From Alistipes sp. (lineage in GTDB: Bacteria > Bacteroidota > Bacteroidia > Bacteroidales > Rikenellaceae), in the NCBI GenBank assembly GCA_017520545.1, contig JAFXFM010000007.1:1-64000 (forward strand): 64,000 nucleotides of DNA, in the 5' to 3' direction. Made by a program: the position numbers and the translations under genes. The notes under the pieces were generated by a model. The model was not told the DNA's origin, ran no database searches, and was given only the letters and a program-made list of their open reading frames with translations. Shown here piece after piece: positions 57,675-60,389 of the stretch; position 1 is the stretch's first letter, and every line of letters begins with the position of its first letter.

Positions 57675-58412
57675 ATGAAAAAACTACTTTTGATTATGGG
57701 ACTTTTATCACTTTTTGGATGTGGCAAGAAAGCCCCGACCTATCCGCAAGATAGGGTTGTGGCAAAAGATGGTTCGGAGATTGTCTTCACATTCTTCGCA
57801 CACGCCTCGTTTGCGATTGAGCATAACGGCAAGCATATCTACATCGACCCCGTAGGTGATTTTGCGTGGGAGCGACTGCCAAAGGCTGATGCGATTCTTA
57901 TTACCCACTCTCACTACGACCACTTCGAGATGGCGACCGTCGAGAAGATTGCGGGCGAGAATTGCGCAATTTTGTGCGACAAAACCTCTGCCGAAGCGTT
58001 CGAGCACGACTGTACAACGATGCTTCCGAGTAGCATAGCAGAGCCTTTCGAGGGTCTGTCGGTAAAGGCTGTCCCTGCCTACAATATCAGTGATGGACAC
58101 ACCGATTTTCACCCACAAGCGCGGGAGGATTGCGGCTATATTCTCACCCTTGGTGGCACAACAATCTATGTCGCAGGCGATACGGAGGACAACGACGATG
58201 TGTTGGCATTGAGGGCTATTGATGTTGCCTTCTTGCCTGTCAATCAGCCTTATACAATGACTATTGAGCAGGCTACACGAGTAGTTAAGGCTATTAAGCC
58301 TACCCTATTCTACCCTTACCACTACGGTCAGGTCGAGGAGAAGACCGATATCGAGGCGTTGGTAAAATCGCTCGACGGCATATGCGAAGTGCGAGTATTC
58401 CCAATGGAGTAA
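57675..58412 (+). CDS. Metallo-beta-lactamase-fold hydrolase lipoprotein
   Basis: The protein has 245 residues and a lipoprotein signal (LLIMGLLSLFGCGKKAP). The MBL fold is of the UlaG-like class: FFAHASFAIEHNGKHIYIDP, metal motif ITHSHYDHFEM, YVAGDTEDNDD and a late His in FYPYHYGQ. It is an envelope-anchored member of a mostly cytoplasmic family; the substrate is unknown. It is coupled to apt (two-base gap) and ends at a strong terminator. Confidence 0.9.
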   Translation: MKKLLLIMGLLSLFGCGKKAPTYPQDRVVAKDGSEIVFTFFAHASFAIEHNGKHIYIDPVGDFAWERLPKADAILITHSHYDHFEMATVEKIAGENCAILCDKTSAEAFEHDCTTMLPSSIAEPFEGLSVKAVPAYNISDGHTDFHPQAREDCGYILTLGGTTIYVAGDTEDNDDVLALRAIDVAFLPVNQPYTMTIEQATRVVKAIKPTLFYPYHYGQVEEKTDIEALVKSLDGICEVRVFPME

Positions 58413-58429: not shown

Positions 58430-58465
58430 AAAGAGGCGTGTCTAAATCGTTAGACACGCCTCTTT
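58430..58465. terminator. Bidirectional terminator between the hydrolase gene and the micro-ORF unit
   Basis: AAAGAGGCGTGTCTAA at 58430-58445 and TTAGACACGCCTCTTT at 58450-58465 are perfect complements with A/T runs. Confidence 0.95.
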
Positions 58466-58469
58466 TACA

Positions 58470-58631
58470 TTACTCCCTCTTCCAACAATGGTCGTATAGA
58501 GGGCAGTGGGGCTGACAGCCGAAGTCATCGTATCCGAACATACACGACAAGTCCGCATTGGAGGAGTTGCTGGCAGCAACCCCCATCACAACCCCCACAA
58601 GCACGCAGATAAGAAGTATAAATAACCACAT
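58470..58631 (-). CDS. Micro-ORF 3: 53-residue membrane protein with Cys-rich tail
   Basis: Start ATG 58631 is one base after the stop of micro-ORF 2 (TAGTATG). It has one membrane segment (MWLFILLICVLVGVVMGVAA), then a polar tail with five Cys and two His: C30, C39, C43, C49 with H42 and H48 (FGCQPHCPLYDHC), enough to bind a metal or form disulfides. An extended frame upstream would swallow micro-ORF 2, which argues for the internal start. Not a family I recognise. Confidence 0.65.
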   Translation of the reverse strand: MWLFILLICVLVGVVMGVAASNSSNADLSCMFGYDDFGCQPHCPLYDHCWKRE

Positions 58632-58632
58632 A

Positions 58633-58719
58633 CTATCTGCTCCAACTATCGCTGCCACCTGCAACTGTTCCCAACACATTGGCAAGCATACCTATAAATA
58701 CCACTATTGCAAACAACAT
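58633..58719 (-). CDS. Micro-ORF 2: 28-residue membrane peptide
   Basis: It is 28 codons, MLFAIVVFIGMLANVLGTVA then a short Gly/Ser tail. It consists almost only of one membrane segment. It starts seven bases after the stop of micro-ORF 1 (spacer ACGAGAT contains GAG) and its stop is one base before micro-ORF 3. Its reality rests on this tight packing, the terminator and promoter at the ends of the unit, and hydrophobicity. Confidence 0.5.
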   Translation of the reverse strand: MLFAIVVFIGMLANVLGTVAGGSDSWSR

Positions 58720-58726
58720 ATCTCGT

Positions 58727-58834
58727 CTATCTTCTGGACTCCACCAAATAAATTGCTGCGCACGAAACGAGTATCAACGACACCGCTACCACCTTTGCCA
58801 ATACAGCACCCACAGAAACTATCAACTCTACCAT
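58727..58834 (-). CDS. Micro-ORF 1: 35-residue membrane peptide
   Basis: It is 35 codons, MVELIVSVGAVLAKVVAVSL then ILVSCAAIYLVESRR. It has one long hydrophobic segment ending in positive residues, with a Cys that might act as a lipobox (LVSC) in a minimal lipoprotein. It is the first ORF after a consensus promoter with a 30-base distance, so it is the best-supported start of the unit. Confidence 0.55.
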   Translation of the reverse strand: MVELIVSVGAVLAKVVAVSLILVSCAAIYLVESRR

Positions 58835-58863
58835 AACTCTACTGTTTTTATTGTTTGATAGTG

Positions 58864-58871
58864 CAAAGGTA
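58864..58871 (-). promoter_or_regulatory. Promoter -7 box of the micro-ORF unit (TACCTTTG)
   Basis: CAAAGGTA reads TACCTTTG leftward, 30 bases before ATG 58834. Confidence 0.7.
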
Positions 58872-58934
58872 TGGGCACGTTTTGACAATTCTTGTCAAAG
58901 TGTATTTTTTGTTTGTTTTTTAGTGTAGTTTTAT

Positions 58935-59034: not shown

Positions 59035-59622
59035 ATGAAGAAATTATTATTTTATTTTGGAATTATCTCCTGCGCTGCTGCAATGATGGTATCGTGCGGT
59101 GGCGAGGCGACCTGCGACGTAACAGAGGTTAGAGCAGGTATCGATGGAACGCAAGGCGTAATCACGTTCGACGGAGGAGCCTGCGAAGTACTCTACTCGC
59201 CCGATTGGGTGAATGTCTATCCGAAGGATAACACGGCACGTTACTTCGTCGCACAGAACAAGACCTCGGAACTTCGTGAGGGTTGCATCGTTTTGGCGTG
59301 CTCGAAGTCGATCTTCTCGATTCCGGTAATACAGGGCACAAGGGCATCTTATCTGGTTTTATCGGAAAAGGCCGTAAATATGGACCACGACGGCGACAAG
59401 GCACGAGTTGCTGTAATCACCAATGGTGGCAAAGTAGCCATAAAATCTATTCCACAGGTTGAGGCTACGCTCAAAGGCGACTACCTGACTCTCGTTTCGG
59501 AGAAGAACGAAGGCAAGAAAATTTCGGGCCGTATCAAAGTTACGTCGGGCAAACTTGTTCGATACATCAACGTAACGATTGAGGCAAATCCCGATGCTAT
59601 TACTGACGGCTCGGAGCTCTAA
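59035..59622 (+). CDS. BACON-like lipoprotein
   Basis: The protein has 195 residues and a lipobox in AAMMVSCGGEATC. Two Ig/BACON-like units can be read: GTQGVITFDGGACEVLYSPDWVNVYP with REGCIVLACSK ... SIPVIQG, then a second beta unit. The pattern of a Trp after SPDW and a repeated V..G segment is that of BACON domains, which bind carbohydrates or mucin in Bacteroidetes. It is followed by a related lipoprotein carrying zinc motifs. Function unproven. Confidence 0.75.
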   Translation: MKKLLFYFGIISCAAAMMVSCGGEATCDVTEVRAGIDGTQGVITFDGGACEVLYSPDWVNVYPKDNTARYFVAQNKTSELREGCIVLACSKSIFSIPVIQGTRASYLVLSEKAVNMDHDGDKARVAVITNGGKVAIKSIPQVEATLKGDYLTLVSEKNEGKKISGRIKVTSGKLVRYINVTIEANPDAITDGSEL

Positions 59623-59675: not shown

Positions 59676-60389
59676 ATGAAAGCAAAATATATTAAGTTGC
59701 TAAGTTTGGTTGCCGCGATGATATTGTCTTCGTGCGGTCCGGCAACATACCTCAACAGCGAGAAGGAGGTAATAAGCGTAGGTATTGAGGGCGGTTCGGG
59801 CTCGGTTGAACTCAGCTGCGATGGCGATATAGAGTTGATTTATGCTCCTACGTGGGCAAATATCGGCTTGGACGGCTCGACATTGAGTTACGAAGTTGGT
59901 CCTAACGAAACCAAAGAACTTCGCAGAGATTATGTGGTTGTCAAGAGCGACGATTTGAGTCTTGCTTTAGAGATTCGTCAAGCAACAGAGGTGTCGTACC
60001 TCGTAATGCCAAAGACGCAGGTATATATCAACAAGAACGGTGTTGGTGGCAAACTCAAAGTCATAACCGATGGATTTGACGTAAAAGTCGAGTGTCCGGA
60101 GGGCATCTCATACAAGTATGATGGCAGCGTATTGGCGTTCAGTTCGAACGGTCATACAGGTCGAGCAAAGAGTTACTCGGCAAAGGTTACTTGTGGCGAC
60201 TTCGAGCAGAAAATCACCATTGTTCAGAAGGGTGATATCTGCACCACTTGTGGCGGTCGCGGTCGTATAACCTGCTCAAATTGCGATGGAGAAGGCGGTT
60301 GGGGATACTACTACTATCGCTCTTGCGATAAATGTAACGGAAAGGGTTCTATTCGCTGCCGCACTTGTGGCGGAACCGGCAAAATTTAA
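59676..60389 (+). CDS. BACON-like lipoprotein with DnaJ-type zinc-binding C-terminus
   Basis: The protein has 237 residues, a lipobox in ILSSCGPATYL, and the same beta units as its neighbour (GGSGSVELSCDGDIELIYAP, with RRDYVVVKSDD). The last 45 residues hold four CxxC pairs: CTTCGGRGRITCSNCDGEGG and CDKCNGKGSIRCRTCGGTG, i.e. the CxxCxGxG repeats of the DnaJ/Hsp40 zinc domain. DnaJ zinc motifs are cytoplasmic in chaperones; here the lipoprotein signal puts them outside the membrane. It ends at a terminator followed by the type-1 structured repeat. Confidence 0.8.
   Translation: MKAKYIKLLSLVAAMILSSCGPATYLNSEKEVISVGIEGGSGSVELSCDGDIELIYAPTWANIGLDGSTLSYEVGPNETKELRRDYVVVKSDDLSLALEIRQATEVSYLVMPKTQVYINKNGVGGKLKVITDGFDVKVECPEGISYKYDGSVLAFSSNGHTGRAKSYSAKVTCGDFEQKITIVQKGDICTTCGGRGRITCSNCDGEGGWGYYYYRSCDKCNGKGSIRCRTCGGTGKI

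What the first reader, a model, noticed from the sequence alone, without database searches (positions are those of the whole stretch)
58470..58871. Three coupled micro-ORFs form a transcription unit of tiny membrane proteins
Between a consensus promoter (58864-58871) and a perfect terminator (58430-58465) lie three consecutive frames of 35, 28 and 53 codons with gaps of 7 and 1 bases. Each is essentially one membrane segment; the last adds a Cys/His-rich tail (five Cys, two His). The two upstream ORFs are too short for normal gene calling. Promoter, terminator, tight coupling and hydrophobicity together suggest a real small-protein system, perhaps an accessory subunit set of a membrane complex, a toxin-like unit or a metal sensor.
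Basis: partly seen in the sequence, partly recalled or inferred. Interest (0 to 1): 0.7.

Follow-up and report, generated by a model that had tools for sequence, protein, structure and literature searches.

The report
Conserved three-gene membrane micro-protein operon
A gut Alistipes-type bacterium carries a tiny operon of three real, evolutionarily conserved membrane micro-proteins, the last with a cysteine/histidine motif that probably holds a metal, behind a promoter element shared with dozens of other, mostly small or DNA-related genes in the same genus.

Summary
In detail: three frames (35, 28, 53 codons; gaps 7 and 1) lie between a TAnnTTTG promoter box and a perfect 16-bp hairpin. They are genuine genes, kept in relatives under purifying selection (pN/pS 0.46, 0.17, 0.51; 0 of 200 shuffles as low in each case). 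ORF3 keeps four Cys and one His in all 12 aligned sequences.

A dyad stands there in 12 of 12 ORF3 loci. The element occurs 55 times in 34 of 151 genus genomes (reversed control 0) against 3 sites in 294 other genomes of the order. Other genes behind it encode zinc-ribbon proteins, HIRAN and HsdR proteins and unknown small proteins. ORF2-like peptides recur beside the zinc-ribbon protein, so the recurrent pattern is operator, membrane micro-protein(s), cysteine-rich partner.

Best reading: a genus-restricted, regulated, probably stress-linked membrane micro-protein operon with a membrane-anchored metal or Fe-S motif. Regulator, stress and target are unknown. An Rrf2-type regulator was tested and rejected. 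Toxin, division-checkpoint and redox-sensor roles remain open.

The parts
58881..58899 (-). Dyad operator TTTGACAAGAATTGTCAAA (core GACA-N5-TGTC)
   Evidence: Sequence; 0-mismatch site; a dyad at the same place in 12 of 12 ORF3 loci; same element before other genes; 3 sites in 294 other genomes of the order
58864..58871 (-). -7 promoter box TACCTTTG (TAnnTTTG type), 10 bases downstream of the dyad
   Evidence: Sequence; spacer of 10 in all 55 sites although 7-12 was allowed
58727..58834 (-). ORF1, 35 aa, one hydrophobic segment; relatives 40-41 aa
   Evidence: alignment A2; 8 of 151 genus genomes; pN/pS 0.46 vs shuffle mean 0.92; hydropathy 2.59
58633..58719 (-). ORF2, 28 aa, hydrophobic segment plus GGSDSWSR tail
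   Evidence: alignment A3; 34 of 151 genus genomes at E <= 0.01; pN/pS 0.17 vs shuffle mean 0.84
58470..58631 (-). ORF3, 53 aa, hydrophobic N-terminus plus C-x8-C-x3-C-P-x3-H-C motif
   Evidence: alignment A1 with invariant C30 G33 Y34 C39 C43 P44 H48 C49 in 12 sequences (first spacing x7 in L011); 11 of 151 genus genomes; pN/pS 0.51 vs shuffle mean 0.91
58430..58465 (.). Perfect 16-bp inverted repeat, loop CGAT; likely terminator, possibly shared with the convergent gene ending at 58412
   Evidence: Sequence; self-match; not listed by the terminator scan

Best explanation
This is a real operon of three membrane micro-proteins, seen in these samples only in one Alistipes-type genus (Rikenellaceae). 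Transcription starts from a TAnnTTTG promoter whose upstream element is a dyad (core GACA-N5-TGTC), probably bound by a dimeric regulator that also controls other small and DNA- or defence-related genes. Shown: coding status, conservation of all three frames, the dyad and its sharing. Inferred: the three peptides insert in the membrane by one helix each; ORF2, with its GGSDSWSR tail, works with a cysteine-rich partner (ORF3 here, a zinc-ribbon protein elsewhere); ORF3 holds a zinc ion or Fe-S cluster with its Cys/His motif next to the membrane; the set is made under stress and modulates a membrane process, in the manner of stress-induced single-helix regulators. The stress and the target are unknown.
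For: Protein-level constraint on each frame. Order ORF1-ORF2-ORF3 behind the dyad in 6 loci (window, L002, L003, L004, L007, L008). Dyad at the same spacing in 12 of 12 ORF3 loci. Element: 55 sites in 34 of 151 genus genomes, reversed control 0; 3 sites in 294 other genomes of the order. A zinc-ribbon protein lies next to ORF2 in 9 of the 20 ORF2 loci fetched (the best 20 of 36 matches). Operator-linked genes include HIRAN, HsdR and a weakly CoiA-like gene, and, with the GTG form, a UvrD-type helicase, an AAA ATPase and WYL-type genes.
Against: No known family matches ORF1-3 significantly. No structure could be predicted. The regulator was not identified: Rrf2 was rejected, and only 1 of 13 CI-like S24 genes examined has such a dyad upstream. 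No dinB- or umuC-like gene was recognised among the sites read, so the type of stress is not established. Membrane insertion rests on hydropathy only. There are no expression data. Many operator-linked genes are of unknown function, so 'stress' is an inference from a minority.
Confidence: 0.6

Rival explanations
1. Redox or metal unit: ORF3 is a membrane-anchored Fe-S or zinc micro-sensor or carrier, with ORF1 and ORF2 as its membrane partners, acting in oxygen or metal stress.
For: The only hit of the ORF3 profile besides the window's own genome in 295 genomes of the order (E 2.8e-4) is the cysteine loop of an Rrf2-family protein with identical spacing, C-x2-G-x5-C-x3-CPLHEH; Rrf2 loops can hold Fe-S clusters (recalled). 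A rubrerythrin-like gene (named by recall) is the next frame of 110 aa or more on the same strand in 2 of 11 named loci (L077, L080). The partner elsewhere is a zinc-ribbon protein.
Against: That hit spans about 30 profile positions at an E-value computed for one genome, while 295 were searched, and the two Rrf2 proteins of the genus lack the loop. Rubrerythrin adjacency is only 2 of 11. The other operator-linked genes with a recognisable domain look DNA- or defence-related rather than redox.
Confidence: 0.3
2. Toxin-like unit: stress-induced single-helix peptides that depolarise the membrane or stop division, like TisB, DinQ, SidA or YneA.
For: Size and hydropathy and a promoter element shared with DNA-related genes. 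SidA is a 29-residue SOS-induced inner-membrane division inhibitor (PMC4211646, passages); DinQ is a toxic single-helix SOS peptide (PMC3567139, start of abstract in the listing). TisB is recalled.
Against: No sequence similarity was shown to any of these. Strongly kept features (GGSDSWSR, Cys/His motif) are more than a simple helix needs. Antisense RNAs and antitoxins were not sought.
Confidence: 0.2
3. Mobile or selfish cassette that moves between loci.
For: Neighbouring genes differ between loci, and distribution is patchy (11 of 151 genomes).
Against: A relative's ORF3 (57 residues of L003) has no match in 50,697 phage or 72,556 plasmid records, and the profile none in viral contigs. Some neighbourhoods recur: an rplS-like gene (by eye) upstream in L077 and L085, its end also in L080 and L012. 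Repeats and recombinases at the unit were not searched for.
Confidence: 0.08
4. Chance open frames in an untranslated region or structured RNA.
For: Very short frames. No Rfam match at the locus gives this no support either way.
Against: Codon-position pattern and pN/pS in all three frames; 0 of 200 shuffles reach the observed values.
Confidence: 0.02

Closest known systems
Stress-induced single-helix membrane peptides (SidA/DidA of Caulobacter, TisB/DinQ of E. coli, YneA of Bacillus)
   Same: Tiny hydrophobic proteins, regulated promoter, possible link to a DNA-related regulon
   Different: No sequence similarity shown; here three peptides in one operon, one with a Cys/His motif; the regulator is unknown
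Fe-S loop of Rrf2-family regulators (IscR, NsrR)
   Same: C-x8-C-x3-C-P-L-x-x-H spacing identical to one Rrf2 protein of another Bacteroidales genome
   Different: No DNA-binding domain, membrane anchored by hydropathy; strong full-length Rrf2 proteins in only 2 of 151 genus genomes and none in the window's genome
Non-canonical LexA (S24, CI-like) SOS regulon of Bacteroidetes (PMC8565304)
   Same: Dyads with a 5-base spacer; topoisomerase IV among predicted targets (parE-like genes here by eye)
   Different: Published motifs are CTAA-N5-TTAG and GGA-N5-TCC, and that paper reports both regulator groups absent from Bacteroidales (sections 12 and 16 read); here GACA-N5-TGTC, with such a dyad before only 1 of 13 S24 genes examined
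Catalogued small-protein families of the microbiome (for example GMSC, PMC11364881, passages read)
   Same: Small membrane proteins from metagenomes
   Different: Whether these three families are in such catalogues was not tested

Membership tests
Rrf2 Fe-S sensor family | Winged-helix Rrf2 domain (PF02082) | tested here: not met
   ORF3 has no Pfam match to it; it is 53 aa with a hydrophobic N-terminus
Rrf2 Fe-S sensor family | Three-cysteine cluster loop | tested here: inconclusive
   Same spacing as one Rrf2 protein in L186; not shared by the two Rrf2 proteins of the genus (L187, L188)
Regulon of an Rrf2/IscR-type repressor | An Rrf2 regulator in genomes that carry the operator | tested here: not met
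   G000 (92% complete) has 0 matches; two strong full-length matches among 151 genomes, G128 and G099, neither among the 34 genomes with TTG-form sites
Bacteroidetes LexA (S24) SOS regulon | Operator CTAA-N5-TTAG or GGA-N5-TCC | tested here: not met
   Dyad here is TTGACA-N5-TGTCAA
Bacteroidetes LexA (S24) SOS regulon | The S24 regulator gene and core SOS genes carry the operator | tested here: inconclusive
   Dyad within 400 bases upstream of 1 of 13 CI-like S24 genes (L153). Zinc-ribbon units lie upstream of recA-like genes; parE-like genes (by eye) at 6 of 30 GTG-form sites read, UvrD-type at 1; no dinB or umuDC recognised
Type I toxin-antitoxin peptides | Small hydrophobic toxin with antisense RNA | not tested
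   Hydrophobic peptides yes; antisense RNA not examined
Phage or plasmid moron genes | Homologues on phages or plasmids | tested here: not met
   No match for ORF3; ORF1 and ORF2 were not searched there

The most novel reading that the evidence does not exclude
The dyad GACA-N5-TGTC marks a hitherto undescribed stress regulon (DNA damage or invasion by foreign DNA) in a Bacteroidales genus, an order for which a published survey found neither known Bacteroidetes LexA group. Its signature output is membrane micro-proteins paired with small cysteine-rich metal proteins, beside HIRAN, HsdR, helicase and topoisomerase genes.
Probability: 0.25. Interest if true: 0.8.

Novelty: new variant of a known kind. 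Interest (0 to 1): 0.5.

Why it matters
Proteins of 28-40 residues are usually skipped in annotation. Here three are shown to be conserved together, and the shared operator gives them a regulatory context that can be tested by mutating one dyad. If the regulon is a DNA-damage or defence response, it would address how Bacteroidales control such genes without the described LexA types.

Tried and rejected
Rrf2/IscR-type regulator for the operator: suggested by the dyad geometry of IscR type 1 sites (recalled) and by the ORF3 loop. Rejected because the window's genome has no Rrf2 match and only two strong full-length Rrf2 matches appear among 151 genus genomes (weaker, mostly partial matches make 55 of 151 at E <= 0.001, 7 of 151 over the cut-off).

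S24/LexA-like regulator: 147 of 151 genomes have an S24 match, so presence does not discriminate. In 13 CI-like S24 genes (15 regions fetched, two without one), the dyad lies within 400 bases upstream in 1 (L153, G088) and not in 12, the window's genome among them; TTCA-N5-TGAA is there in 8 of 13. Not supported, not excluded.

Mutual exclusion of the two operator forms: 34 genomes with the TTG form, 23 with the GTG form, 4 with both against about 5 expected. No claim is made.

Similarity to solved structures: only bone morphogenetic protein chains at E 0.3 or worse, disregarded. DUF3679 (E 0.019, below its cut-off) disregarded. The hit in L013 lies inside a tRNA-lysidine synthetase-like frame (by eye) and was dropped from the counts of ORF3 loci; G086 still counts as a genome by its other locus. 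The 'VWA-like' label of one operator-linked gene is by eye; Pfam gave no match.

Full report
What is there. On the minus strand of the window, between a TAnnTTTG-type -7 box (58871-58864; consensus recalled) and a perfect 16-bp hairpin (58465-58430), lie three consecutive frames: ORF1 (58834-58727, 35 aa), ORF2 (58719-58633, 28 aa) and ORF3 (58631-58470, 53 aa), with gaps of 7 and 1 bases. Each has one strongly hydrophobic segment (best 19-residue Kyte-Doolittle means 2.59, 2.38 and 2.86). ORF3 adds a C-terminal part with Cys and His. The terminator scan did not list the hairpin, since no run of five T follows the stem; the hairpin may serve the convergent gene as well.

Are they genes? A search with ORF3 in 151 genomes of the genus (drawn evenly from a larger group) found matches in 11 genomes, own included. 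Of the 13 matched loci, one (L013) is inside another gene and is dropped, leaving 12. ORF1 was found in 8 of 151 genomes (9 loci), ORF2 in 34 of 151 at E <= 0.01 (36 matches). Alignments: ORF1 65% mean column identity over 8 sequences, ORF2 73% over 8 (two of them distant), ORF3 with 8 invariant residues over 12 sequences, C30 G33 Y34 C39 C43 P44 H48 C49 (the first cysteine spacing is x8 in 11 and x7 in L011). A Nei-Gojobori count on codon alignments gives pN/pS of 0.46 (8 sequences, 35 codons), 0.17 (6 sequences, 27 codons) and 0.51 (12 sequences, 48 codons), against column-shuffle means of 0.92, 0.84 and 0.91, with 0 of 200 shuffles at or below the observed value in each case. The values are uncorrected proportions and the sequences are related, so they show constraint rather than its exact strength.

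Variation of the unit. The order ORF1-ORF2-ORF3 is seen in 6 loci (window, L002, L003, L004, L007, L008). L005 has ORF1 and ORF3 without ORF2. L012, and the further named locus L077, have an unrelated 42-residue hydrophobic frame in place of ORF2. L094 has ORF1 and ORF2 with a different third frame. Four loci (L006, L009, L010, L011) have only a longer ORF3-type protein of 144-149 residues (lengths of the stretches aligned) with an acidic tail. ORF1 in the window is shorter than in relatives because of an earlier stop. The named relatives (11 loci) are Alistipes sp. and Rikenellaceae MAGs; the titles that name a host name sheep, yak, water buffalo and water deer. Neighbouring genes differ between loci. 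By eye, an rplS-like gene lies upstream in L077 and L085 and about 2 kb off in L081, and a rubrerythrin-like gene follows in L077 and L080. The ORF3 of L003 had no match in plasmid or phage records, and the profile found no relative in viral contigs. In 295 genomes of the order, the ORF3 profile hit only the window's genome and one Rrf2 protein; a zinc-ribbon relative (below) hit only the window's genome.

The operator. Upstream of the -7 box is TTTGACAAGAATTGTCAAA. The pattern TTGnCA-N5-TGTCAA-N(7-12)-TAnnTTTG gave 55 sites in 34 of 151 genus genomes; the reversed control pattern gave none; every site had a spacer of exactly 10. With the spacer fixed at 10, 295 genomes of the order gave 5 sites in 4 genomes: two in the window's genome and three elsewhere. 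Two of those three lie, by eye, before a VWA-like gene and an HsdR-like gene. A looser check finds a dyad with the same 10-base spacer in all 12 ORF3 loci: 7 fit the TTG pattern exactly, L011 has the GTG form, two have TTGACG on the left (L005, L006) and two have GATATTTG as the box (L004, L012). Over 53 distinct sites the left fourth position is A in 41, T in 11 and G in 1, so the dyad is not always perfect. A second form, GTGnCA-N5-TGnCAC with the same spacer, gave 32 sites in 23 of 151 genomes, control none. The outer base thus changes on both sides together, as expected of a two-fold site, but a tandem 10-base repeat of TGnCA fits too.

What else it precedes. One search prints 50 of the 55 genus sites (four more, before ORF3-type genes, are; one is a repeat). 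By my reading of those 50: ten lead to units with a 67-70 residue zinc-ribbon protein (Pfam zinc-ribbon scores below cut-off), five of these with a hydrophobic micro-ORF first. Six lead to members of the ORF1/ORF2/ORF3 families. Fourteen lead to HIRAN-type genes (PF08797, E 3.3e-15 for the one scanned) and/or a family of 184-324 residues where complete, without Pfam match, which by eye resembles EVE/PUA-like and HD domains (recalled, untested). HsdR follows in L059 (PF04313) and, by eye, in L107 and L064 (the latter cut by the contig end). One leads to a weakly CoiA-like protein (below cut-off). The rest are small unknown proteins or unclear, and some may be chance, such as L109. In the GTG set (30 of 32 sites read) six precede parE-like genes (by eye). 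Others precede a UvrD-type helicase (PF00580), two AAA-type proteins (PF00004 for the one scanned), two WYL-type regulators (PF13280, at the cut-off in L217 and below it in L245), ORF2-like pairs with a zinc ribbon, and acidic micro-proteins. Of the 20 best ORF2 loci, seven are ORF1/ORF2 units, nine have a zinc-ribbon protein next to ORF2 (downstream in eight, upstream in L182), and four have ORF2 alone behind the operator. By eye an operator-like dyad stands in front of 19 of the 20; the region before the zinc-ribbon gene in L182 was not examined. In five of these loci (L167, L174, L175, L177, L178) ORF2 and the zinc-ribbon gene lie upstream of a recA-like gene; in the window's genome the zinc-ribbon gene alone does.

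How it may work. Shown: three conserved genes in one unit, a shared dyad at a fixed place, and invariant Cys/His residues. Inferred: a dimeric regulator acts at the dyad, which overlaps the -33 region. Repression is the simplest reading, but activation by a protein bound there, as for lambda cII (recalled), is not excluded. The three peptides sit in the membrane, and ORF3 holds a metal there. The spacing C-x2-G-x5-C-x3-C-P-L-x-x-H is identical to that in the cysteine loop of an Rrf2 protein in G187. The E-value was 2.8e-4 for one genome and 295 were searched, so this is a lead only, and the two Rrf2 proteins of the genus do not share that loop. The recurrent pairing of ORF2-like peptides with a cysteine-rich partner suggests that the membrane peptide places or regulates that partner. 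Those operator-linked genes whose domains are recognisable point to DNA- or defence-related stress, which makes stress-induced membrane peptides such as SidA (PMC4211646, passages) the nearest functional analogy; no homology is claimed.

Regulator. Rrf2 was tested and rejected. S24 matches are near universal in the genus (147 of 151); of 13 CI-like S24 genes checked, one (L153) has the dyad within 400 bases upstream and 12 do not. WYL-type genes carry GTG-form sites twice (L217, L245), which would fit autoregulation but was not tested. The published Bacteroidetes LexA study (PMC8565304: abstract, sections 12 and 16, and passages read) gives other motifs and reports both LexA groups absent from Bacteroidales. 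The dyad is therefore not one of the two main SOS motifs described there.

Novelty. ORF1, ORF2 and ORF3 had no significant match in Pfam, NCBIfam or PHROGs. Literature searches (listings, with passages of PMC8565304, PMC4211646 and PMC11364881) showed no description of this unit or motif in what I saw; catalogues of small proteins were not searched by sequence. The genomes are mostly incomplete MAGs, so counts of presence are lower bounds. I rate it a new variant of a known kind: regulated membrane micro-proteins, with new families and a new operator.

Noticed in passing
L054 1501-1600, L057, L072, L106 (operator loci): A first operator-promoter leads straight into a short hairpin of the form GTCCC...GGGATTTTT within about 40 bases, in L054, L057 and L072 followed by a second operator-promoter before a HIRAN operon; it looks like an attenuator or a tiny RNA.
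   Followed up: no
L167, L174, L175, L177 between the zinc-ribbon gene and the recA-like gene: A further conserved 23-24 residue hydrophobic frame (MLFVxFFS...) lies between the two genes.
   Followed up: no
L054, L055, L057, L076: Operon of a HIRAN protein, a VWA-like protein (only in L054; label by eye, no Pfam match) and a ~324-residue family without Pfam match, repeatedly behind the same operator.
   Followed up: partly
L217 and L245: WYL-type regulator genes with perfect palindromes (GTGACA-N5-TGTCAC, GTGCCA-N5-TGGCAC) at the same promoter position, suggesting autoregulation.
   Followed up: no
L142, L146-L150, L152, L155 upstream of the S24 gene: 8 of 13 CI-like S24 regulator genes of the genus have a TTCA-N5-TGAA dyad upstream (about 65 bases before the start in 7), a possible own operator.
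   Followed up: partly
window 59676-60389: A predicted lipoprotein ends in DnaJ-type CxxCxGxG-like repeats (by eye); it follows a related lipoprotein gene at 59035-59622.
   Followed up: no
L224, protein behind a GTG-form site: Another operator-linked protein with a hydrophobic N-terminus, a four-cysteine motif and an acidic tail, like the long ORF3 type by architecture; similarity was not tested.
   Followed up: no
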